DNA of 64,000 nucleotides from Paraburkholderia sp. Tr-20389 (GTDB taxonomy: Bacteria > Pseudomonadota > Gammaproteobacteria > Burkholderiales > Burkholderiaceae), in contig NZ_JAAGPD010000020.1 in the NCBI RefSeq assembly GCF_017104565.1, positions 1 through 64,000 of the forward strand. Direction: 5' to 3'. A program made the translations under genes and the position numbers. Below are positions 4,915 through 54,345 of this stretch, piece after piece. How positions within the stretch are numbered: position 1 is the stretch's first letter; each line of letters begins with the position of its first letter. The notes beneath the pieces were generated by a model. The model was not told where the DNA came from and made no database searches. It saw nothing but the letters and a program-made list of their open reading frames with translations.

Positions 4915-5796
4915 ATGAACGCGCGTTACACCGGTTATGTTTTCTGCGCGCTGGCGATGATCGGCGTGGGCAGTACTGTGGTGGTCAGCAAGGGGATCGC
5001 AGGTGGCTTGCCGCCGTTCTCGGCGACCGCGTTGCGCTTTGCGATTGCGTTTCCGATATTTCTCGCGATGATGCGGGTGCTGAAGGTTCGGTGGCCGAAG
5101 CTCGACGCGCGCGATACGTTGTTGTTGATCGCGCAGGCGGGCGCGGGAAGCGTTGGCTATACGGTTTTTCTGATCGGCGGGATGCGGCTCGCGTCGGCGG
5201 CCGATGCGGGCGTGATTGCGGGAACGTTGCCGGCGGTGTCGGCTGTCTTTGCGATGCTCGCGCTTGGGGAGCGGCCGTCGGTGGCCGTCGTTGGTGCGAT
5301 TGCGCTCGCGACGCTGGGTGTGGTTGTTTGTACCGTGCGGGTAGATGCACCTTTCGGTGCGCATTCTTTTGTCGGAAACGCGCTCGTGTTTGCGGCGATT
5401 GTCTGCGAGGCGCTGTTTATTCTGCTGAATCGCAAGCTGCGTACGCCCGTTGCGGCGTTGCCGTTGTCGGCGCTGATGAGCGGGATCGGGTTGCTTGTTG
5501 CTGTTTTGCCTGCCTGTTTTTTCGAGCAGCCCTGGCGGTTGGCTGTGGATTCTGGGCTTGCTGGCGCAGTCGCCGGAGTCGTGTATTACGCGCTCGTGCC
5601 GACTGTGCTTGGATTCGTGCTGTGGTATGCGGGTTCGTCTCGCCTGAGCGGCGCGGAGGCCGGTGTTGTCACTGCTCTCGTGCCTGTGTCCGCTCTTGTG
5701 CTTGCTGTTGGCGTGTTGCGGGAGAATGTTAGCGGTGCGCAGATTTTCGGGGTCGCTTGTGTGTTGGGTGGGGTTTTTTTGTCTGCGACGCGGTGA
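4915..5796 (+). CDS. DMT superfamily (EamA) transporter
   Basis: An inner-membrane permease, probably a metabolite or amino-acid exporter. The 293 residues carry about ten hydrophobic helices arranged as two EamA repeats (roughly residues 5-140 and 150-290), the normal family length. The start at 4915 has a strong GAGGAGG ribosome-binding site. Its substrate cannot be read from the sequence. It lies directly upstream of giant palindrome copy A, which may end its transcript. Confidence 0.9.
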   Translation: MNARYTGYVFCALAMIGVGSTVVVSKGIAGGLPPFSATALRFAIAFPIFLAMMRVLKVRWPKLDARDTLLLIAQAGAGSVGYTVFLIGGMRLASAADAGVIAGTLPAVSAVFAMLALGERPSVAVVGAIALATLGVVVCTVRVDAPFGAHSFVGNALVFAAIVCEALFILLNRKLRTPVAALPLSALMSGIGLLVAVLPACFFEQPWRLAVDSGLAGAVAGVVYYALVPTVLGFVLWYAGSSRLSGAEAGVVTALVPVSALVLAVGVLRENVSGAQIFGVACVLGGVFLSATR

Positions 5797-5802
5797 TGCT
5801 TT

Positions 5803-6506
5803 TTTTTGCTGGCAAGCGCCTGTTTTTCGCTGGCATCCGCGATTTGCCTTCGTGCTTCATGCGTTGCCCCTGTGCGGGGCGGCACTTACTTTCTTTGCCG
5901 CCGCAAAGAAAGTAAGCAAAGAAAGCGGGCTAACCCCGCCAGTGCTAGTGATTGCCTGCGGGCCCCCAACAGTTCCTACGCTTCAAACGGCAACGCGTTT
6001 GTTTGTGCCCGTTGCCAGCGTGCTAACTGCACGCATCACCCGCTTCACACTCCCGCGCCACGGACCGCGTTACCTGAAGTCCACTGCCGCCCAGGTGGCA
6101 AACGGTGTGTAGGCCATCGCGACGGAAGTGCACCACTCCGGACTGAAAAGCGGGATCGGTGTCGTAAGAACGCTAACGCGTATGGTGCGACAACCTACAC
6201 ACAGTTTGCCACCTGGGCGGCGCAGACGATTCGCTGCGGCTGGCTGCGCTACGGGAGGTTGGAGTGGGTGATGCGTGCAGTTAGCACGCTGGCAACGGGC
6301 GGGAAATATGGCGTTGCCGTTCGAAGTGCGGGACCCGTTGGGGGCCCGCAGGCAGTCACAAGAATTGGCGGTGTTAGCCCGCTTTCTTTGCTTACTTTCT
6401 TTGCGGCGGCAAAGAAAGTAAGTGCCGCCCCGCACAGGGGCAACGCCTGAACACCGACATGAAATCGCGGATGCCAGCGAAAAAAAAACCGCCAGCAAAA
6501 AAACCA
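5803..6506. repeat. giant imperfect palindrome, copy A
   Basis: About 700 bases between two convergent genes. The left arm (about 5803-6113) is mirrored by the right arm (about 6194-6506) around an 80-base centre. Matched landmarks include TTTTTCGCTGGCATCCGCG (from 5823) with its complement ending at 6485; GCCCCTGTGCGGGGC near each end; GCCGCCCAGGTGGCAAAC (6086-6103) with its complement at 6204-6221; and GTGTGTAGG (6105) with CCTACACAC (6194). Each arm also holds its own 14-bp hairpin, CTTACTTTCTTTGC/GCAAAGAAAGTAAG, at 5885-5916 and 6391-6422. T-runs lie at the outer edges on both strands. ORFs inside are by-products of the symmetry. A related copy lies at 13925-14581. Confidence 0.9.
5885..5916. 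repeat. internal hairpin of palindrome A, left arm
   Basis: CTTACTTTCTTTGC (5885-5898), loop CGCC, then GCAAAGAAAGTAAG (5903-5916): a perfect 14-bp stem. The same stem is in the right arm at 6391-6422 with loop GGCG. Confidence 0.9.
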
Positions 6507-6540
6507 GAATGGCGACTAGCGTCGCAGACAAAAAAAACGA

Positions 6541-7170
6541 CTAAGTATTAGCCACACTAACCGCCGTAGGACTATTCACGATGGACAAAAACTCCCTGCG
6601 AGTAGAAGGATCCGACCTGAAAGTCCCGAGCATCCGGGAAGTCACCATCTCAACGCCCGCCTTATGCACGCCCCGCGTGGACATACACTGATGCGAAGCT
6701 TCGAGAATCACGCCAACGCCCTTGGGCTGCAATACTTCGTTGAGCGTATCGGCGATCTGCACGGTCATCTTCTCCTGAATCTGCAGCCGCTTGGCAAACG
6801 CATCAACAAGGCGAGCCAGCTTGGATATCCCCACCACCCGATGCTCGGGCAAATAAGCAACATGAGCCCGCCCAATGATCGGCACCATGTGATGCTCGCA
6901 GTAACTTTCGAAGCGAATATCCTTCAGCACGATCATTTCATCGTAACCATCCACCTCCGAAAACGTGCGCGCAAGAATGTCGCGCGGCTCCACGTTGTAG
7001 CCCGCGAAAAATTCTTCATACGCTCGCACAACACGCGCCGGCGTGTCGAGCAGCCCCTCGCGCTGAGGATTGTCGCCCGCCCAGCGCAGTAACGTGCGCA
7101 CGGCTTCTTCGGCTTCCTCGCGGGATGGCCTGCCGGGTGCGTCGGTGGGTGTTGTTTTCTTCGTCGTCAT
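6541..7170 (-). CDS. folE: GTP cyclohydrolase I
   Basis: Converts GTP to 7,8-dihydroneopterin triphosphate, the first step of folate and tetrahydrobiopterin synthesis. The 209-residue product has the FolE core, with the zinc ligands in CEHH (C91, H94) and HQC (C162), and the conserved [10 protein letters not shown] and STRGV segments. The start at 7170 is preferred because GGAGCGA lies upstream and the family N-terminus begins there; the frame can be read back to 7272 without a ribosome-binding site. The LysR gene upstream on the same strand ends 105 bases before it. The gene ends at the edge of palindrome A. Confidence 0.95.
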
Positions 7171-7275
7171 CCTTCGCTCCAGTTCCAGTAACACGCGCTT
7201 CGCATGTTGGGGCATTGTTCCATGTTTCCCGGCCCTACGCCCAACATGGATTTGCATCACATCCTGATGCAAGCG

Positions 7276-8199
7276 CTACTTCGGCCACTCATCCTTCGCG
7301 TCGTTGAACAGCTCGGCAACCACGCTACGAAGCCAGCCGGCACGCGGATCGTTATGAAACTTGCGATGCCAATGCTGCCTCAAGTCGAAGCGCGGCAACG
7401 GCAAAGGCGGTTCGACCAGCGTGATCGATGCATGTTCCGACACGTACGCAAAGCCGATCGCATGCGGCACGGTCGCGATCAGATCGGTGCGCGCAAGGAT
7501 GAACGGCAGGCTCATGAAGTGCGGCGTCTCGAGCACCGCGCGGCGCCGGATGCGTTTTTTCTCCAGATACTGTTCGAGCACTTCCTGGCTGCGTCCTTCG
7601 GCACGCACCACGGCATGCCCGAGTGCGATGAACTGTTCGAGCGTCAGCGGCGCGCCCGCAAGCGGATGGTCGCTGCGCATCAGGCAGATGAAGCGGTGCG
7701 TGAACAGACGCTGCTGAAAGAAGTTGTTGCCGGAAAGATCGGGAAAGTAACCGACGGCGAGATCGATATCGCCCGATTCCAGTCCACGCTCGACATGCGC
7801 AGGCGGCAACGACACCGAACGCAGGTTCGCATGCGGCGCGCGCTCGGCAAACAGCTGCAACAGACGCGGCAGAAAGACGATTTCGCCGACATCGGATAGC
7901 GCAAGTGAAAAGGTCTGCGTCGTGGTCGCGGGATCGAAGTCCTGCGATTCGAGCATGCCTTTCTCGATACGCGCGAGTGCTTCTCGCGCCGCGGGAATCA
8001 GCGCCAGCGCGCGCGGCGTCGGCTCCATGCCGCGCGACGTGCGCACGAACAGCGGGTCGTTGAAGTATTCGCGCAGACGGCCAAGCGCCGTGCTCACGCG
8101 CGGCTGGCTCACGCCGAGACGTTCGGCGGCGCGGCTCACGTTGCGCATGTCTTCGAGCGCGACAAGGTAGGGAATCAGGTTGAGATCGAGTTCGGCCAT
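7276..8199 (-). CDS. LysR family regulator, divergent from pobA
   Basis: A LysR-type activator/repressor. The N-terminal winged helix (residues 5-65) has SRAAERLGVSQPRVSTALGR, followed by a linker helix and an effector-binding domain (residues 90-300). The start at 8199 (MAELDLNL) fits the family; a second ATG at 8214 would add five residues. It is divergent from pobA across a 150-base spacer, the classical LysR arrangement, so control of pobA by 4-hydroxybenzoate or a related aromatic acid is a reasonable inference. Other bacteria use AraC- or IclR-type PobR for this job. Confidence 0.9.
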   Translation of the reverse strand: MAELDLNLIPYLVALEDMRNVSRAAERLGVSQPRVSTALGRLREYFNDPLFVRTSRGMEPTPRALALIPAAREALARIEKGMLESQDFDPATTTQTFSLALSDVGEIVFLPRLLQLFAERAPHANLRSVSLPPAHVERGLESGDIDLAVGYFPDLSGNNFFQQRLFTHRFICLMRSDHPLAGAPLTLEQFIALGHAVVRAEGRSQEVLEQYLEKKRIRRRAVLETPHFMSLPFILARTDLIATVPHAIGFAYVSEHASITLVEPPLPLPRFDLRQHWHRKFHNDPRAGWLRSVVAELFNDAKDEWPK

Positions 8200-8350
8200 G
8201 CTGGGGCGCGGCATTCAAGATGAACCGCACATTATCGACAAATCGTATATAACCTAACTTAAAAATGGCGATTTCGCATAGTCGGGAAAGCGCCGAGGGT
8301 CGCGTTTATAGAGGCGAACACTCGAACAAAAACGTTGGAGGCGACAAGCG

Positions 8351-9550
8351 ATGCGCACCCAAGTGTTGATCATCGGCGCCGGCCCCGCCGGCCTGCTGTT
8401 GTCGCATCTGCTGCGGCTCGCGGGCGTCGAATCGGTGGTGCTGGAGAGCCGCTCGCGCGAACACTGCGAGCACCGGATACGCGCAGGCGTGCTAGAGCAG
8501 GGCACCGTCGATACACTCAACGAAGCCGGCCTCGGCGCGCGAATGCAACGCGAAGGACTCGTGCATCACGGTATCGAACTGCTGTTCGACGGCAAGCGTC
8601 ATCGAATCGATCTGACGACGTTGACGGGCGGGCGCGCCATCACCGTGTACGGCCAGCATGAAGTGGTGCGCGACATGATCGCGTCCGCCGTCGAGCACCA
8701 ACAGGCGCTGCATTTCGATGTAGCCAATGTCGCACTGCACGATCTCGCGACGCACAGTCCGTGGGTCCAGTTCACGCACGATGGCGCAGTGCGGCGGATC
8801 CAATGCGACTACGTGGCGGGCTGCGACGGCTTCCACGGCATCGCACGCGAGTCGATCCCGCCCGACGCGCTGCAAACCTTCGAGCGCGTCTATCCCTACG
8901 CATGGCTCGGCATTCTGACGGACGCCGCGCCGAACTGCGACGAACTCGTCTACGCGCATCACACGCGCGGCTTCGCGCTCTTCAGCATGCGCTCCGCCGA
9001 CGTGACGCGTCTCTATCTGCAATGCCGTCCCGACGAAGATCTCTCGCAATGGCCCGACGAGCGCATCTGGACCGAGCTTCACGCGCGTTTCGAGAACGAC
9101 GACGGCTGGCTGCCCGCAATCGGCGACATCACGCAGAAAGGCGTGACGCCGATGCGCAGCTTCGTGTGCGAGCCGATGCAATACGGCCGCCTCTTCCTGG
9201 CCGGCGACGCCGCGCACATCGTGCCGCCGACAGGCGCGAAAGGCATGAATCTGGCCGTCGCCGACGTGCGCGTGCTGTCGCAGGCGCTCGCCGCGCACTA
9301 CCGCGAAGGCCGCGACGATCAGCTCGACACGTATTCGGCGACTTGCCTCGAGCGCGTCTGGCGCGCCGAGCATTTCTCGTACTTCATGACGAACATGCTG
9401 CATCCGTCGCTCGACGATTCGCCTTTCGTCGAACGTCTGAAGCTCTCGGAACTGCGCTACGTGACGAGTTCGGATGCAGCGTCGCGAATGCTGGCAGAGA
9501 ATTACGTGGGGCTGCCGTTTCGCGATCGAGCCGAAAGCGCGGCGCAGTAG
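8351..9550 (+). CDS. pobA: 4-hydroxybenzoate 3-monooxygenase
   Basis: A flavoprotein that hydroxylates 4-hydroxybenzoate to protocatechuate with NADPH and oxygen. The 399 residues show the FAD motif GAGPAG (9-14), the second FAD/NADPH motif CDG (158-160) and the GD motif (285-286). Residues lining the active site of the well-studied Pseudomonas enzyme are at the same numbers: Tyr201, Ser212, Arg214, Arg220, Pro293 and Tyr385. That is strong evidence for the exact reaction. A GGAGG lies upstream of the start. It feeds the pca genes that follow and is divergent from a LysR regulator. Confidence 0.97.
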   Translation: MRTQVLIIGAGPAGLLLSHLLRLAGVESVVLESRSREHCEHRIRAGVLEQGTVDTLNEAGLGARMQREGLVHHGIELLFDGKRHRIDLTTLTGGRAITVYGQHEVVRDMIASAVEHQQALHFDVANVALHDLATHSPWVQFTHDGAVRRIQCDYVAGCDGFHGIARESIPPDALQTFERVYPYAWLGILTDAAPNCDELVYAHHTRGFALFSMRSADVTRLYLQCRPDEDLSQWPDERIWTELHARFENDDGWLPAIGDITQKGVTPMRSFVCEPMQYGRLFLAGDAAHIVPPTGAKGMNLAVADVRVLSQALAAHYREGRDDQLDTYSATCLERVWRAEHFSYFMTNMLHPSLDDSPFVERLKLSELRYVTSSDAASRMLAENYVGLPFRDRAESAAQ

Positions 9551-9572
9551 GGCAAACCACGAATCCGTTGCC

Positions 9573-9602
9573 TTGACAAGAGATGCGGACGCAAACCATA
9601 AT
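9573..9602 (+). promoter_or_regulatory. probable sigma-70 promoter of the pca operon
   Basis: TTGACA (9573-9578), an 18-base spacer and CATAAT (9597-9602) match the sigma-70 consensus at 11 of 12 positions. The predicted transcript starts near 9609, about 220 bases before pcaI. Confidence 0.6.
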
Positions 9603-9612
9603 GCGCCGGTAC

Positions 9613-9646
9613 GTTCGCTAAACGAAACTGTGTTCGCATTAAGAAC
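9613..9646 (+). promoter_or_regulatory. tandem palindromes below the pca promoter, candidate operator
   Basis: TTCG-CTAAA-CGAA (9614-9626) and GTTC-N7-GAAC (9632-9646) lie just after the predicted transcription start. Short GTTCG/CGAAC-type palindromes are typical of IclR-family sites such as those of PcaR. No IclR gene is in the window, so the regulator would be encoded elsewhere. Confidence 0.4.
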
Positions 9647-9831
9647 TTTTCGGAGTTCAACGACGGCACGGAAGCGGGCGGCGAACCCAACACATGCGGC
9701 CTGCGGCAGGTCTGCATGCCGTCAGCAGGACCATGAAGGAACAAGCGGACGTGGAGACCGTCCGGTGCGCATCCGCCGTTGAAGCGGCGGGTCGTGCGGC
9801 GCGGAACGACGCGTTCCAGAGGATATTCGAC

Positions 9832-10533
9832 ATGATCAACAAGATTTTCGAGTCACTCCAGTCGGCAGTCGCCGACGTGCATGACGGCGCGACCGTCATG
9901 ATCGGCGGCTTCGGCACGGCGGGCATGCCGTCCGAACTGATCGACGCGCTCATCGAGCAGGGCGCCAAAGAACTGACCATCGTCAACAACAACGCCGGCA
10001 ACGGCGACGTGGGCCTCGCGGCGCTGCTGAAGGCGAAGCGCGTGCGCAAGATCATCTGCTCGTTCCCGCGCCAGACGGACTCGTACGTGTTCGACGCGCT
10101 CTATCGCGCCGGCGAAATCGAACTGGAACTTGTGCCGCAGGGCAATCTGGCCGAGCGCATCCGCGCGGCGGGCGCCGGTATCGGCGGCTTCTTCACGCCG
10201 ACGGGTTACGGCACGAAGCTCGCGGAAGGCAAGGAAACGCGCGAGATCGACGGCAAGCATTACGTGCTGGAAGCGCCGCTGCACGCCGATTTCGCGCTCA
10301 TCAAGGCGTACAAGGGCGACCGCTGGGGCAACCTGGTGTATCGCAAGACGGCGCGCAATTTCGGCCCGATCATGGCGAGCGCCGCGAAGACGGCCATCGT
10401 GCAGGTGTCGGAAGTGGTGCCGCTCGGCGCGCTCGACCCCGAAGTGATCGTGACGCCGGGCATTTTCGTGCAGCGCGTCGTCGAAGTGCCGCAAGCGGCG
10501 CATCAAACGCAACGCCCCGAACAAGCCGCCTGA
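9832..10533 (+). CDS. pcaI: 3-oxoadipate CoA-transferase subunit A
   Basis: The alpha subunit of the succinyl-CoA:3-oxoadipate CoA-transferase, which activates 3-oxoadipate in the beta-ketoadipate pathway. The 233-residue product is of normal length and carries the glycine-rich CoA-transferase motif GGFGTAGMP near residue 25 and GGFFTPTGYGT near residue 120. The start at 9832 follows AGAGGAT; the frame can be read back to 9694 but without family homology. The stop is 11 bases before pcaJ, so the two subunits are translated from one message. Confidence 0.95.
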   Translation: MINKIFESLQSAVADVHDGATVMIGGFGTAGMPSELIDALIEQGAKELTIVNNNAGNGDVGLAALLKAKRVRKIICSFPRQTDSYVFDALYRAGEIELELVPQGNLAERIRAAGAGIGGFFTPTGYGTKLAEGKETREIDGKHYVLEAPLHADFALIKAYKGDRWGNLVYRKTARNFGPIMASAAKTAIVQVSEVVPLGALDPEVIVTPGIFVQRVVEVPQAAHQTQRPEQAA

Positions 10534-10544
10534 AGGAGACCGAC

Positions 10545-11204
10545 ATGAAACGACTGACCCGCGATGAAATGGCGAAGCGCGTCGCGCAGGACATTCCTGA
10601 AGGCGCCTATGTGAACCTCGGCATCGGCGTGCCGACGCTGGTGGCGAATCACCTCGACGCGAACAAGGAAATCTTCCTGCACAGCGAGAATGGTTTGCTC
10701 GGCATGGGCCCGGCGCCCGCGAAAGGCGAGGAAGACGACGAACTGATCAATGCCGGCAAGCAGCACGTCACGCTGCTGACGGGCGGCGCGTTCTTCCATC
10801 ACTCGGATTCGTTCGCGATGATGCGCGGCGGCCACCTCGACTACTGCGTGCTCGGCGCATTTCAGGTGTCGGCGACGGGCGACCTGGCGAACTGGCACAC
10901 GGGCGCACCGGACGCGATTCCTGCTGTCGGCGGCGCGATGGATCTGGCCATCGGCGCGAAGCAGGTGTTCGTGATGATGGAGCATCTGACGAAGCAGGGC
11001 GAAAGCAAGATCGTCTCCGCGTGCTCGTATCCGGTGACGGGGGTCGGCTGCGTGGACCGCATCTATACGGACCTCGCGATGATCGACGTGACGAAGGACG
11101 GCCTCGTCGTGCGCGAGATCTTCTCGGATATCGACTTCGCGGAACTGGAAAAGCTGACGGGCGTCGCGCTGATCGACGGCACGCAGCAGGCTCGCGCAGC
11201 CTGA
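10545..11204 (+). CDS. pcaJ: 3-oxoadipate CoA-transferase subunit B
   Basis: The beta subunit partner of PcaI. The 219 residues include the SENG motif (residues 47-50) whose Glu48 is the expected covalent CoA-ester residue in this transferase family, followed by LLGMGP. AAGGAG precedes the ATG. The gene ends before a GC-rich hairpin and a 137-base gap to pcaB. Confidence 0.95.
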   Translation: MKRLTRDEMAKRVAQDIPEGAYVNLGIGVPTLVANHLDANKEIFLHSENGLLGMGPAPAKGEEDDELINAGKQHVTLLTGGAFFHHSDSFAMMRGGHLDYCVLGAFQVSATGDLANWHTGAPDAIPAVGGAMDLAIGAKQVFVMMEHLTKQGESKIVSACSYPVTGVGCVDRIYTDLAMIDVTKDGLVVREIFSDIDFAELEKLTGVALIDGTQQARAA

Positions 11205-11230
11205 GGCTTGCACGGGCTTGAATCGCGATG

Positions 11231-11291
11231 CGCGCGCAAATGCGCGCGTGACCTCGCCGCGGCGTTCGGCGACAATGAAACCGAACGCCGC
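11231..11291 (+). terminator. two hairpins between pcaJ and pcaB
   Basis: CGCGCGCA/TGCGCGCG (11231-11248) is followed by GCGGCGTTCGG (11259-11269) pairing with CCGAACGCCGC (11281-11291), an 11-bp stem. No T-run follows. The structures could attenuate transcription or stabilise the 3' end of the pcaIJ message. Confidence 0.4.
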
Positions 11292-11341
11292 GCGCTTTCT
11301 GGCGCGAACTTAACGCGCATTCATCCAACGCACTGAACATC

Positions 11342-12706
11342 ATGCTAGAAGCTAGCGCCCGCTTGACTGGCCTGATCTGCGGCACGCAGCCCATGAACGA
11401 CATCTGGTCGCCGCGCGCGACGCTGCAACGGATGCTCGACGTCGAAGCGGCGCTCGCCCGGGCCTCGGCGGCACATGGCGTGATTCCGCAGTCGGCCGTC
11501 GCCGCGATCGAAGCGACCTGCCACGCGGACAAACTCGACGCCGACGCACTCGCACGCGACGCCGCGCTCGGCGGCAATCTCGCGATTCCCCTCGTCAAAC
11601 AGCTGACTGCGCGCGTCAAGGACGCCGATGCGCAAGCGTCGAAGTTCGTCCATTGGGGCGCGACGAGTCAGGACATCATCGATACCGCGACCGTGCTGCA
11701 ACTGCGCGACACGTTCGATCTGCTCGACGGCGCACTGGCGTCGACGTGCGATGCCATCGCCGCGCTCGCGCAACGGCATCGTGCAACGCCGATGATCGGC
11801 CGCACGTGGCTGCAGCAGGCGCTGCCCATCACGCTCGGTCTGAAGTTCGCGCAATGGCTCGATGCGTTGCTGCGTCATCGCGAGCGGTTAGACGCGCTGC
11901 GCGAACGCGCGCTCGTGCTGCAATTCGGCGGCGCGGCGGGCACGCTCGCGAGCCTGCGCGACAAGGGCGGCGTGGTGGCCGAAGCGCTCGCGCAGGAACT
12001 GAAGCTGCAATTGCCCGCTGTGCCGTGGCACACGCAGCGTGACCGCATCGCCGAAGCGGCCTCGTTTTTCGGCATGCTGATCGGCACGCTCGGCAAGATC
12101 GCGCGCGATATCTCGCTGCAAATGCAGACCGAACTTGGCGAACTTGGCGAACCGGTTGCCGCAGGCAAGGGCGGTTCGTCGACGATGCCGCACAAACGCA
12201 ACCCGGTCGGCTGCGCGGCCGTGCTGACGGCGGCGACGCGCGCACCCGGTCTCGTCGCGACGGTGTTCGCGGGGATGGTGCAGGAGCACGAACGCGCGCT
12301 CGGCGGATGGCAGGCCGAGTGGGATTCGCTGCCCGATCTCGCGCGTCTCGCGGGCGGCGCGCTCGCGAATATCGAGCAGATCGCGAAGGGCCTCGAAGTG
12401 AATGTCGAGCGGCTCGCTGCGAATCTCGACGTCACGCATGGTCTGATTCTCGGCGAAGCGGTGATGCTCGCGCTTGGCGACAAGATCGGGCGGATGGACG
12501 CGCATCATCTCGTCGAGCATGCGTCGAAAGAGGCCGTGAAAAGTGGCAAGACACTATTCGACGTGCTGGCCGCCGATGCATCCGTCACTCAACATCTGCC
12601 TGTCGAGCAACTGAAGCGGCTGCTCGATCCGGCCCATTATGTCGGCAGCGCGCATGCCTTCGTGGATGCCGTGCTGGCTCTTCATACCGCGCGCAAGAAC
12701 GCGTGA
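11342..12706 (+). CDS. pcaB: 3-carboxy-cis,cis-muconate cycloisomerase
   Basis: Cyclises 3-carboxymuconate, the product of protocatechuate ring cleavage, to 4-carboxymuconolactone. It belongs to the fumarase/aspartase superfamily: the signature GSSTMPHKRNP starts at residue 278, and GATSQDIIDTA lies near residue 105. The length of 454 is normal. Together with pcaD and pcaC it forms the ordered middle of the protocatechuate branch. The ring-cleaving dioxygenase genes pcaGH that would supply its substrate are not in this window. Confidence 0.95.
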   Translation: MLEASARLTGLICGTQPMNDIWSPRATLQRMLDVEAALARASAAHGVIPQSAVAAIEATCHADKLDADALARDAALGGNLAIPLVKQLTARVKDADAQASKFVHWGATSQDIIDTATVLQLRDTFDLLDGALASTCDAIAALAQRHRATPMIGRTWLQQALPITLGLKFAQWLDALLRHRERLDALRERALVLQFGGAAGTLASLRDKGGVVAEALAQELKLQLPAVPWHTQRDRIAEAASFFGMLIGTLGKIARDISLQMQTELGELGEPVAAGKGGSSTMPHKRNPVGCAAVLTAATRAPGLVATVFAGMVQEHERALGGWQAEWDSLPDLARLAGGALANIEQIAKGLEVNVERLAANLDVTHGLILGEAVMLALGDKIGRMDAHHLVEHASKEAVKSGKTLFDVLAADASVTQHLPVEQLKRLLDPAHYVGSAHAFVDAVLALHTARKNA

Positions 12707-12727
12707 ACCAACATCAGGAGTAAAGGA

Positions 12728-13519
12728 ATGCCTTACGCCGCAGTCAATGGCATCGAGCTTCACTACCGGATCGACGGCGACCGTCATGGCAATGCGCCGT
12801 GGCTCGTGCTGTCGAATTCGCTCGGCACGGATCTGTCGATGTGGACGCCGCAAGTCGCGGAATTCGCGAAGCATTTCCGCGTGCTGCGTTACGACACGCG
12901 TGGCCACGGTCATTCGGAAGCGCCGAAGGGACCGTATTCGATCGAACAGCTGACGGGCGACGTGATCGGTCTGCTCGACACGTTGAAGATTTCGCGCGCG
13001 AATTTTTGCGGCATCTCGATGGGCGGGCTGACGGGCATCGGGCTCGCGGCGCGCTACGCGGACCGTATCGATCGCGTCGTGCTGTGCAATACGGCGGCGC
13101 GCATCGGCTCGCCGGAAGTGTGGGTGCCGCGCGCGGCGCGGGCGCGTACGGAAGGCATGCTGACGTTGTCGGATGCTGTGCTGCCGCGCTGGTTCACGGC
13201 GGAGTTCATCGCACGCGAGCCGCTCGTGTTCAACTATGTGCGCGATGTTTTCGTGCACACCGACAAGGAAGGTTACGCGCTGAACTGTGAAGCGATCAAC
13301 GCGACGGATCTGCGGCCGGAGGCGCCTGGTATCAAGGCGCAGGCGCTGGTGATCTCCGGCACGCACGATCTTGCTGCGACGCCTGCGCAAGGGCGCGAAC
13401 TGGCCGCCGCGATTCCGGGCGCGCGTTATGTCGAACTGGATGCATCGCATATCTCGAACATCGAGGTGGCGGATACGTTCACGAAGACGGTGGTCGATTT
13501 CCTGAAGGGGCAGCGATGA
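12728..13519 (+). CDS. pcaD: 3-oxoadipate enol-lactonase
   Basis: An alpha/beta hydrolase that opens 3-oxoadipate enol-lactone to 3-oxoadipate. The nucleophile elbow GISMGG puts the catalytic Ser at residue 97, with Asp214 (GTHD) and His241 (ASHIS) completing the triad. The length of 263 is normal. AGGAG lies before the start. The stop overlaps the pcaC start by four bases (ATGA), which indicates translational coupling. Confidence 0.95.
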   Translation: MPYAAVNGIELHYRIDGDRHGNAPWLVLSNSLGTDLSMWTPQVAEFAKHFRVLRYDTRGHGHSEAPKGPYSIEQLTGDVIGLLDTLKISRANFCGISMGGLTGIGLAARYADRIDRVVLCNTAARIGSPEVWVPRAARARTEGMLTLSDAVLPRWFTAEFIAREPLVFNYVRDVFVHTDKEGYALNCEAINATDLRPEAPGIKAQALVISGTHDLAATPAQGRELAAAIPGARYVELDASHISNIEVADTFTKTVVDFLKGQR

Positions 13520-13908
13520 ACGACGATCAACGATATGAAGCGGGCATGAAGGTGCGCCGCGCGGTGCTGGGCGATGCGCATGTGGATCGTTCGCTGGAGA
13601 ACCGCACCGAGGTTACCGAGGAGTTTCAGAATTTCATCACGCGGTATGCGTGGGGCGAGATCTGGACGCGAGAAGGGTTGCCGCGGCATACGCGGAGTCT
13701 TTTGACCATTGCGATGATGGTCGCGCTCAATCGCGGCGAGGAGCTTGCGCTGCATCTCCGCGCTGCGCGGAATAATGGGGTTACTCGCGAGCAGGTTAAA
13801 GAGGTTTTGCTGCAGACTGCTGTTTATTGCGGTGTGCCCGCGGCTAATTCTGCTTTTCATCTCGCTGATAAGATTTTTAAAGAGCAAGACGAGGCTGCGG
13901 GCGCCTGA
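13516..13908 (+). CDS. pcaC: 4-carboxymuconolactone decarboxylase
   Basis: Removes CO2 from 4-carboxymuconolactone, giving the enol-lactone used by PcaD. The 130-residue single-domain protein has the AhpD/CMD fold, with the conserved WTREGLPRHTRSLLTIAMM helix and an HLRAARNNGV segment. It overlaps pcaD by four bases and is the last pca gene. The final codons become AT-richer (tttttaaagag) as the gene runs into palindrome copy B. Confidence 0.95.
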   Translation: MNDDQRYEAGMKVRRAVLGDAHVDRSLENRTEVTEEFQNFITRYAWGEIWTREGLPRHTRSLLTIAMMVALNRGEELALHLRAARNNGVTREQVKEVLLQTAVYCGVPAANSAFHLADKIFKEQDEAAGA

Positions 13909-13924
13909 GGGTTTGCGCTGTTTT

Positions 13925-14581
13925 AGCGCTGGCATCCGCGCTGTGTCTCTGGTTTGCTAGCGTTGCCCCTGTGCGGGGCGGCACCTACTTTTCTTTGCAG
14001 CGGCAAAGAAAAGTAGGCAAAAGAAAGCCGCTCACACCGCCAATTCTTGTTCCTGCCTGCGGGCCCCCGACGGGTCCCGCACTCCACGCGGCATCGAGCT
14101 AATCCATCCTCGTTGCCAGCGTTCTTCGATTCGCATCCCCCACTTCACATTCCTGCGTCACGGCCTGCGTTACCAGACGTTCACCGCCGCCCAGGTGGCA
14201 AACTATGTATTGGCTGTCGCGACGTCAACGCACCACTCCGGACTGACAAACGGGATCGGTGTCGTAGGATCGCAAACGCATGCGGCGCGACAACCTACAC
14301 ACAGTTTGCCACCTGGGCGGCGCAAACCATTCGCTGTCGCTGGCTGCGCTACGGATGAATGGAGTGGGTGATGCGCCTGTTCACGGCGTTGGCAACGGGC
14401 GGAAAAAAGCGTGTTGCCGTTTGGAGTGCGGGACCGGCTGGGGGCCCGCAGGCAATGACTAGCACTGGCGGTGTTAGCCCGCTTTCTTTGCTTACTTTCT
14501 TTGCGGCGGCAAAGAAAGTGAGTGCCGCCCCGCACAGGGGCAACGCCTGAACCACGAAGGCATAACGCGGATGCCGGCGCA
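13925..14581. repeat. giant imperfect palindrome, copy B
   Basis: A second copy, in the same orientation as copy A, between pcaC and the liv operon. The outer ends are AGCGCTGGCATCCGCG (13925) and CGCGGATGCC (14566-14575). GCCGCCCAGGTGGCAAAC (14186-14203) mirrors 14304-14321, and the centre (CACCACTCCGGACTGA, GGGATCGGTGTCGTA) is nearly the same as in copy A. The left-arm hairpin is CCTACTTTTCTTTGC/GCAAAGAAAAGTAGG (13984-14017). The right-arm hairpin keeps the copy-A form with one A-to-G change (14491-14522). The two arms match each other less well than in copy A. Confidence 0.9.
13984..14017. repeat. internal hairpin of palindrome B, left arm, with compensatory changes
   Basis: A 15-bp stem with loop AGCG. 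Against the copy A stem, CTTAC/GTAAG has become CCTAC/GTAGG, and an extra T:A pair is inserted. Both sides have changed together, so pairing is kept. Confidence 0.85.
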
Positions 14582-53415: not shown

Positions 53416-53841
53416 ATGAGCAAGCCCATTTCCCACGACGATTGCAACTGCTTCGCGCTGCGCCAGGCGGCGCGGTACGTGACGCAGATCTACGAGCGCC
53501 ATCTGGGCGAGGTCGGCCTGACGGCAGCCCAGTTCACCATCGTCGCCAAGCTCGCGCGCAAGCCGGGTCTGACCATGGTAGAACTGGCGGACTCGATGGT
53601 GATGGAGCGCACCACGCTCGTGCGTGCGCTCAAGCCGTTGCAGCGGGATGGTCTTGTCATCAGCGAATCGTCTGAGCACGACGGGCGTACTTATCAGTTC
53701 AGCCTGTCGAAGGCGGGCAAGCAAACGTTCGAGCAGGCTGCGCTTGCGTGGCGCGCCGCACAGGAAGAATTCGAAAGCAAGTTCGGACGCAGTCGCGCAA
53801 AAGCATTGCGCGCCGAACTGTTCAATCTGACGTCGTCGTAA
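53416..53841 (+). CDS. MarR family regulator, first of a tandem pair
   Basis: A 141-residue winged-helix regulator. The recognition helix region is MVELADSMVMERTTLVRAL, followed by the wing (SSEHDGRTYQFSL); an N-terminal HDDCNCFALRQAARYV segment is shared with its neighbour. The two genes are clearly paralogous and are followed by an efflux operon. GTGCATACGCAC lies 17 bases before the ATG. No ribosome-binding site is seen, which agrees with a leaderless message. It probably represses itself and the pump until an inducer, perhaps a phenolic drug-like compound, binds. Confidence 0.9.
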   Translation: MSKPISHDDCNCFALRQAARYVTQIYERHLGEVGLTAAQFTIVAKLARKPGLTMVELADSMVMERTTLVRALKPLQRDGLVISESSEHDGRTYQFSLSKAGKQTFEQAALAWRAAQEEFESKFGRSRAKALRAELFNLTSS

Positions 53842-53934: not shown

Positions 53935-54345
53935 GTGTCGCCCGAAGACGATTGCTTTGCGATCCGACAGGCGGCGCGCTATGTGACTCAGGTTTACGAC
54001 CGTCACCTTGGCCAAGTGGGCCTCAAGACCACGCAGTTTTCGATCATGTGCCGGCTGCTTCGCCGCAAGTGGATGACGATGAAGGAACTCGCGGACTCGA
54101 TGGTGATGGAACGCACCACGCTGGTCCGCGCGATCCAGCCATTGCAGCGCGACGGCCTGGTTTTCACCGAAGCATCGCGCAGCAATCGCCGTGTGTTGAC
54201 CGTGATGCTGACGACAGCGGGCGAAGAGCGCTTGAAAACGGCACGCGAGCATTGGTACGCGGCGCAGAGTGAATTCGAGGAGCGTTTCGGATCGCAGCGT
54301 GCAGCCCGGCTGCGCGACGAACTGTTCGACATGACCAGGCGGTAA
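53935..54345 (+). CDS. MarR family regulator, second of a tandem pair
   Basis: A paralogue of the previous gene, sharing CFAIRQAARYVTQVYDRHLG and MKELADSMVMERTTLVRA. The GTG at 53935 was chosen because it gives 136 residues aligning with the 141-residue paralogue, has a purine-rich AAAGAGAT before it, and keeps the operator outside the gene. An ATG at 53902 would lie inside the palindrome and add 11 residues. Two paralogous repressors may form heterodimers or respond to different inducers of the same pump. Confidence 0.85.
   Translation: MSPEDDCFAIRQAARYVTQVYDRHLGQVGLKTTQFSIMCRLLRRKWMTMKELADSMVMERTTLVRAIQPLQRDGLVFTEASRSNRRVLTVMLTTAGEERLKTAREHWYAAQSEFEERFGSQRAARLRDELFDMTRR

What the first reader, a model, noticed from the sequence alone, without database searches (positions are those of the whole stretch)
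5803..14581. Two giant palindromes with nested hairpins that show compensatory base changes
Each element is about 650-700 bases, almost entirely self-complementary around an 80-120-base centre, and holds separate 14-15-bp hairpins in each arm. Seen directly: copies at 5803-6506 and 13925-14581 are in the same orientation and share a near-identical centre. In the left-arm hairpin, CTTAC/GTAAG (copy A) is CCTAC/GTAGG (copy B) with an extra T:A pair, while the copy B right arm has a G that could pair as a wobble. Paired changes point to selection for pairing in RNA or single-stranded DNA. Both copies sit at gene-block borders. Similar short-hairpin repeats are known as common in Burkholderia-group genomes, but I know of no function for this whole element.
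Basis: partly seen in the sequence, partly recalled or inferred. Interest (0 to 1): 0.75.

Follow-up and report, generated by a model that had tools for sequence, protein, structure and literature searches.

The report
Giant palindromes that swap their insides
This bacterial genome carries more than a hundred long, mirror-image, non-coding DNA repeats parked mostly behind genes; they keep their places between related species but appear to keep exchanging and flipping their inner sequence with one another, which explains their mirror symmetry better than selection for a folded RNA does.

Summary
Both palindromes are real. They belong to a family of about 125 copies in this Paraburkholderia genome (103 read here), about 660 bp each, non-coding, mostly at gene 3' ends. 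Each is two inverted ~82-bp hairpin modules, conserved across the genus and recognisable in other Burkholderiales, around a lineage-specific palindromic interior.

Mirrored two-sided changes are significant between lineages (0/500 shuffles). Among the 103 copies of one genome they are absent outside a short spacer (24,562 Watson-Crick cells observed, 24,542 expected), and G-U pairs are not favoured. Compensatory selection for RNA pairing is therefore not the best reading.

The copies behave like a recombining population. Linkage between sites falls from r2 0.26 to background within about 130 bp. Mirrored columns share allele spectra. Copies cluster by genome although 23 of 30 sites are shared with a relative; there element similarity equals that of random pairs and orientation is 12 same, 11 inverted, while end-hairpin type is remembered. 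Turnover is visible between strains with 99% identical flanks.

Best explanation: position-stable, MITE/REPIN-like palindromic repeats homogenised and flipped by ectopic gene conversion, which maintains the palindrome. Any host function is unproven. New variant of a known kind.

The parts
5803..6506 (+). Element A, quasi-palindrome; core 5823-6484
5774..5791 (+). Outer left end of A (T-tract + GTCTGCGACGC), overlapping the 3' end of the EamA gene
   Evidence: I3, 100% complementary to 6519-6536; related outer motif at 118 of 206 ends
6519..6536 (+). Outer right end of A (GCGTCGCAGAC + A-tract)
5828..5841 (+). Left core terminal repeat CGCTGGCATCCGCG of A
6466..6479 (+). Right core terminal repeat CGCGGATGCCAGCG of A
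5861..5941 (+). Left ~82-bp end module of A (small hairpins), the genus-wide conserved part
6366..6446 (-). Right end module of A, inverted
5885..5916 (+). 14-bp hairpin, type 1, left end of A
   Evidence: 118 of 198 parsed ends are this variant
6391..6422 (+). 14-bp hairpin, type 1, right end of A
6086..6221 (+). Central block of A: inverted GCCGCCCAGGTGGCAAAC... arms (35 nt, 89%) around an asymmetric, conserved centre
13925..14581 (+). Element B, quasi-palindrome
13927..13940 (+). Left core terminal repeat of B
14566..14579 (+). Right core terminal repeat of B (one mismatch)
13960..14042 (+). Left end module of B (type 2 hairpin)
14466..14546 (-). Right end module of B (type 1, CTCAC variant)
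13984..14017 (+). 15-bp type 2 hairpin of B
14491..14522 (+). 14-bp hairpin of B, 93% paired
14185..14322 (+). Central block of B (40-nt inverted arms, 88%)

Best explanation
The elements are members of a dispersed, non-coding, quasi-palindromic repeat family of the MITE/REPIN style: two inverted ~82-bp hairpin modules around a palindromic interior, sitting mostly behind genes. Shown as a pattern: positions are shared between species, while the elements cluster by genome, carry no ortholog signal at about 10% flank divergence, and have random orientation. Inferred mechanism: homologous (RecA-type) ectopic gene conversion between copies, with tracts of tens to about a hundred base pairs, pairing through the shared end modules and arms. 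Because the ends are inverted repeats, a donor can pair in either orientation, so left and right arms form one common allele pool. That pooling keeps the family palindromic and makes both arms drift together between lineages, without compensatory selection on an RNA. Separately, the end modules look held by purifying selection, to judge from their conservation across species, for a purpose not known here.
For: Linkage among 103 copies: r2 0.264 at 1-3 nt, 0.022 at 64-128 nt, 0.014 beyond (shuffled 0.013); four-gamete fraction 0.64 rising to 0.98. The decline recurs in G307 and in three P. caribensis replicons. Mirrored columns: heterozygosity correlation 0.817; minor-allele overlap 0.808 against 0.47 for same-base controls; yet mirrored r2 is 0.015 outside the spacer. 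Of 30 G307 copies, 23 sit at sites also filled in my 103 copies (22 with both flanks matching, 1 with one), 12 same and 11 inverted. These pairs are 82.9% identical, non-orthologous pairs 82.8%; median rank of the ortholog 48 of 103. The nearest neighbour is from the same genome for 30 of 30 and 103 of 103; 2 label changes on the tree against 27 shuffled. End-hairpin type agrees at 33 of 43 orthologous ends (permuted mean 60%, p=0.005; 24 of 43 if orientation is reversed), so ends stay while insides change. Time series among the copies fetched: flanks 99.2% -> elements 93.5% (non-ortholog 88.4%), 1 of 17 inverted; flanks 95.2% -> 86.5% (85.9%), 4 of 14 inverted; flanks 95.4% -> 86.2% (85.3%), 2 of 11 inverted; flanks ~90% -> no signal, 11 of 23 inverted. 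Non-coding: 1-nt indels dominate (84 deletions, 254 insertions), no Pfam or NCBIfam hit.
Against: No recombination event was observed directly, and RecA dependence is untested. Differences between strain orthologs have variance/mean above 1 in 17 of 17 pairs (1.5-5.7), but conserved modules cause part of that; blocks identical to another copy of the same genome explain at most about half of the differences (14 of 25, 18 of 34, 12 of 23) and none in 5 of 17 pairs, so exact donors are mostly not identified. Between the closest strains turnover is only partial: the ortholog is still the closest copy at 8 of 17 sites and 16 of 17 keep orientation. In the smaller sets long-range r2 (0.054-0.060) stays somewhat above the unlinked level (0.034-0.048). 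G307 loci are the 30 best matches to copy A, not a random sample. G000 is a draft of 129 contigs (the linkage result recurs in genomes of few contigs). Re-insertion at the same sites is not strictly excluded. Longest open frames are longer than in shuffled copies (127 and 132 against 106 codons).
Confidence: 0.74

Rival explanations
1. One reading: the palindrome is a structured RNA or single-stranded DNA kept folded by compensatory selection.
For: Two-sided changes between lineages exceed shuffles; end hairpins are very conserved; RF02421 Bp1_684, a B. pseudomallei sRNA candidate tested by RT-PCR, matches the outer arms at 30-34 bits, below its cut-off of 44.
Against: No covariation among 103 copies outside a short spacer, mirrored r2 at background, G-U not favoured (285 against 328 expected; A-C 185 against 230). 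No Rfam match at gathering score in the window.
Confidence: 0.1
2. Actively transposing MITE or REPIN moved in trans by a transposase; shared sites arise by repeated insertion into preferred targets.
For: High copy number, inverted hairpin ends; site A is filled in 4 related genomes and empty between the same neighbours in 13 of the 30 loci read.
Against: Sites are shared between species (23 of 30) and strains (17, of 23 and 22 copies fetched); end types and flanks beyond ~40 nt keep ortholog memory; no target duplication was recognised by eye; no gene call inside any of 102 assessed copies. A transposase gene elsewhere in the genome was not sought.
Confidence: 0.12
3. Bidirectional 3'-end element: terminates or insulates transcription, or protects mRNA 3' ends, for the genes on both sides.
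For: Convergent 51, tandem 46, divergent 5 of 102 assessed copies, against 23, 87, 32 of 142 control gaps of 50 nt or more (Fisher 2e-8 for convergent, 1e-4 for divergent). In two distant relatives read by eye (G368, G065) the site-B gene has an ordinary hairpin + T7 terminator instead.
Against: Hairpin + U-run signals are commoner reading outward (186 of 206) than inward (114 of 206), the wrong way for ending flanking genes. C-rich inward arms, as Rho sites need, are not consistent in the 12 other-lineage loci looked at. 3' ends are also simply where insertions do least harm. Not exclusive of the best explanation.
Confidence: 0.25
4. Arm-to-arm correction inside each copy (hairpin template switching) keeps the palindrome.
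For: Covariation in the outer spacer (columns 88-106 with 692-710); copy-specific mirrored bits in other species; collapsed palindrome at site B in G344.
Against: Across the rest of the arms mirrored sites are unlinked.
Confidence: 0.15

Closest known systems
REPINs (REP doublets forming hairpins; PMC3116915, passages including the abstract seen)
   Same: Dispersed extragenic units made of two conserved short palindromes in inverted orientation around a spacer; non-coding; many copies.
   Different: Far longer (about 660 bp) and itself one long palindrome; the end hairpin is AT-rich with a repeated CTTTCTTTGC; a RAYT link was not tested here; copies are site-stable and recombine.
R0/R2 MITE-like intergenic repeats of Pseudomonas fluorescens SBW25 (PMC2718517, passages seen)
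   Same: Intergenic, hairpin-forming inverted repeats around a variable core, unevenly spread ('repeat deserts').
   Different: Those are 89 and 110 bp and their inverted repeats are identical to those flanking resident insertion sequences; a parent element was not sought here.
Human Y-chromosome palindromes, e.g. P6 (PMC3723533, abstract and outline seen)
   Same: Palindromes whose arms are kept alike by gene conversion, with occasional inversion.
   Different: Arm-to-arm conversion at one locus with kilobase tracts and rare inversion; here over 100 short dispersed copies exchange with each other and inversion is common.
Rfam RF02421 Bp1_684 (PMC3521395, passages seen)
   Same: Shares the GCCGCCCCGCNCAGGGGCNACGC outer hairpin.
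   Different: Below the family cut-off; little beyond that stretch aligns well.

Membership tests
REPIN | two REP-like palindromes in inverted orientation around a spacer | tested here: met
   135 of 177 modules in 109 loci have an inverted partner within 900 bp; 27 of the other 42 lie near a locus edge
REPIN | associated RAYT transposase gene in the genome | not tested
REPIN | short unit (the R0/R2 repeats that map to REPINs are 89 and 110 bp) | tested here: not met
   matched stretches are about 650-675 aligned bp in 97 of 103 copies, shorter (523-635) in 6
REPIN | evidence of excision of the unit | tested here: inconclusive
   only sites A and B were read closely; no clean excision seen, a collapsed palindrome at site B in G344
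MITE | terminal inverted repeats, non-coding, many copies | tested here: met
MITE | target-site duplication and a matching transposase-bearing parent | tested here: inconclusive
   no duplication recognised in flanks by eye; a parent element was not sought
Structured RNA family | two-sided changes beyond shuffles between lineages | tested here: met
   (the shuffles do not keep relatedness)
Structured RNA family | covariation among copies in one genome and tolerance of G-U on the transcribed strand | tested here: not met
Rfam Bp1_684 | score at or above the gathering cut-off (44 bits) | tested here: not met
   30.2-34.0 bits
Intrinsic terminator | GC hairpin followed by U-run facing the flanking gene | tested here: inconclusive
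   114 of 206 inward against 186 of 206 outward

The most novel reading that the evidence does not exclude
The end hairpins are recombination sites of a dedicated system: the interior is a cassette that a host or element-linked enzyme exchanges between, and inverts within, fixed docking sites behind genes, so that over a hundred copies form an intragenomic 'sexual population'.
Probability: 0.12. Interest if true: 0.88.

Novelty: new variant of a known kind. Interest (0 to 1): 0.63.

Why it matters
A bacterium carries over a hundred long quasi-palindromes, sequences usually thought unstable in bacteria (recalled), and distant sites in them are in near linkage equilibrium across the copies of one genome. 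That makes a natural assay for ectopic gene conversion and inversion rates. It also warns that significant covariation between lineages can come from recombination of inverted arms, not RNA folding: the same structure passes a covariation test across species and fails it among copies in one genome.

Tried and rejected
Protein coding: frames of 214 and 153 aa cross copy A and longest open frames exceed shuffled copies (127 and 132 against 106 codons), but 1-nt indels dominate, no clear 3-base rhythm is seen and Pfam and NCBIfam give nothing. Phage origin: no match in 50,697 phage records. E. coli: none. Insertion into terminators: hairpins upstream of the outer T-run are no commoner than in the control (12 of 66 against 14 of 65). 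Rho-type C-rich arms: 102 and 103 of 103 own copies have C>G reading inward, but the 12 other-lineage loci do not agree. Vertical descent with a burst just before speciation: clustering by genome and random orientation do not fit. A notebook entry calling the site-B element of G373 inverted was wrong; at site B the seven other full-length copies match G000 best in its own orientation.

Rows dropped and biases: 8 of 206 ends could not be parsed, and parsing required parts of the hairpin itself, so more divergent ends would be missed; 1 of 103 copies had no assessable neighbours, and the simple gene caller misread folE beside copy A (it counted A as tandem); one weak flank match (65.8%) was left out of the 23 pairs; G307 copies are the 30 best matches of 40 scored out of 183 candidates; P. 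caribensis copies are those fetched with at least 450 aligned bases (23, 22 and 24), not all copies. Core length was projected from the query ends; six copies gave shorter matches.

Literature: the listings of searches of the open PMC library, judged by titles and abstract openings, show no paper that describes this family; subscription papers are not held.
Full report
What is there. They belong to a family: a 704-base query found 40 full-length copies, the number the tool scored of 148 candidates; the half-centre 18-mer with up to 3 mismatches occurs 127 times forward and 125 reverse against 8 and 4 for the reversed control, so about 125 elements, each giving one hit per strand; a strict asymmetric centre finds 81. 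I read 103 distinct copies. Projected core length is 657-667 bp; six of the 103 matched over a shorter stretch, 523-635 aligned bases. The family fills roughly 1% of the 9.0-Mb genome (125 x 0.66 kb, arithmetic).

Anatomy. Outside in: an outer variable zone, at 118 of 206 ends with the motif G[TC]CTGCG[AG]CG, often after a T-run; the core terminal repeat CGCTGGCATCCGCG; a short variable spacer; an ~82-bp end module with a GCCCC-TGTGC-GGGGC hairpin and a CTTACTTTCTTTGC-CGCC-GCAAAGAAAGTAAG hairpin; variable inner arms; and a centre with inverted GCCGCCCAGGTGGCAAAC. In the 198 of 206 ends that could be parsed the second hairpin has only four variants, with 118, 61, 10 and 9 ends. Its arm CTTTCTTTGC is repeated just outside the hairpin, so alternative pairing is possible (sequence).

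Distribution. Yet where I looked, the interior of several of those others is also a palindrome between inverted modules, with different sequence and different outer repeats. In 109 loci found by an end-module pattern, of which 80 were named in the output (Paraburkholderia, 'Burkholderia sp.' and one Caballeronia), 135 of 177 modules have an inverted partner within 900 bp. The hairpin part reaches 58 of 399 sampled genomes of the order, in 32 of 158 genera; in the loci read outside the genus it is mostly a solitary unit behind a structured-looking stretch. The lineage's own centre is restricted: 116+117 hits here, at most 6 on a strand in any of 298 other genomes sampled in the family. Phages: none. 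Plasmid collection: 15 records, 10 Paraburkholderia and 5 Caballeronia.

Position. Of 102 copies with assessable neighbours, 51 lie between convergent genes, 46 between tandem genes and 5 between divergent genes; 142 control gaps of 50 nt or more give 23, 87 and 32. Median distance to the next gene is about 98 bases. Site A is filled in G000, G344 (inverted), G351 (same ends, different interior) and G307 (left end damaged, left neighbour not seen); it is empty between the same neighbours in 13 of the 30 loci read; one genome (G310) has an element next to folE without that left neighbour, two have a single module, ten could not be judged. Site B holds full-length elements in 8 of 30 loci, own included; one is cut by a contig end, G344 has a collapsed palindrome, and two have remnants; the rest show none or could not be judged.

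Is the pairing selected? Between 16 lineages, yes by the usual measure: 87.8% of cells pair against 84.3% shuffled, 102 pairs show two-sided change against 69.1, covariation 0.181 against 0.123, 0 of 500 shuffles each. But in 103 copies of one genome 24,562 Watson-Crick cells are seen against 24,541.9 expected from independent columns; G-T cells are 2,164 against 2,150.7 and A-C cells 1,982 against 1,959.7, so no strand-specific G-U tolerance shows. Between lineages G-T (285 against 328) and A-C (185 against 230) are both depleted. Only a ~20-nt outer spacer shows pairing excess within the genome.

What keeps the mirror? Mirrored columns share allele spectra (heterozygosity correlation 0.817; minor-allele overlap 0.808 against 0.47) although mirrored sites are unlinked within copies. 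This is expected if left and right arms are one pool, shuffled between copies in both orientations. Linkage between sites in the 103 copies falls from r2 0.264 at 1-3 nt to 0.014 beyond 128 nt, the shuffled level being 0.013; G307 and three P. caribensis replicons show the same decline, to 0.054-0.060 against an unlinked level of 0.034-0.048 in these smaller sets.

Turnover at fixed sites. Of 30 G307 copies 23 are at sites filled in G000, with flanks about 90% identical, 12 in the same and 11 in inverted orientation. These pairs are 82.9% alike, non-orthologous pairs 82.8%; the copies cluster by genome. End-hairpin type (33 of 43, p=0.005) and flanks beyond about 40 bases still show the shared origin. 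Within P. caribensis, 17 shared sites with 99.2% flanks have 93.5% identical elements, and for 9 of 17 the closest fetched copy in the other strain is at a different site; at 95% flank identity the ortholog is closest in 1 of 14 and 1 of 11. So the sites look inherited and the contents replaced.

Mechanism and limits. Ectopic gene conversion through shared ends and arms explains homogenisation, short tracts, inversion and mirror maintenance together. It is inferred, not seen; donors could rarely be pinned down. What selects the end modules is unknown; a role at gene 3' ends is possible but the terminator-like signals point mostly the other way. A weak link to the sRNA family Bp1_684 concerns mainly the outer hairpin.

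Compared with the known. It resembles REPINs and MITEs in architecture and Y-chromosome palindromes in behaviour, but the combination of length, fixed sites and free recombination among dispersed copies is not one I found described (listings of searches).

Noticed in passing
L291-L300, L423-L432: A solitary unit, about 180 nt of structured-looking sequence with GAGC..CGCAGGG-like loops followed by TTTCTTTG[C/G]TTACTTTCTTTG-loop-CAAAGAAAGT, occurs in many of the Burkholderiales and class-mate loci read and, by the hairpin alone, in Pasteurella and Ilyobacter plasmid records. In five of these loci scanned against Rfam (L291, L294, L296, L299, L300) no family reached its cut-off.
   Followed up: partly
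G000 contig C19; G307 contig C5: Copies are sparse on some replicons or regions: 2 of 81 on the 991-kb contig C19 (8.9 expected) and 2 of 40 listed on G307 C5 (11 expected).
   Followed up: no
outer flanks of the 103 copies (e.g. window 5774-5827, 6485-6536): The 80 nt outside the core are strongly biased reading inward (A 7-8%, T 37-38%) although their sequence differs from copy to copy.
   Followed up: no
window 5774-5796: The last codons and stop of the EamA gene lie inside the outer end motif of element A; in G351 the gene ends differently, so the element may have supplied a new C-terminus.
   Followed up: partly
L204 1250-1360: At site B P. phymatum (G344) has a collapsed palindrome: two short spacer arms joined over one hairpin, as expected from palindrome-mediated deletion.
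   Followed up: no
window 53449-53667 and 53953-54171: A direct repeat of 219 bases, 72.6% identical, inside the window.
   Followed up: no
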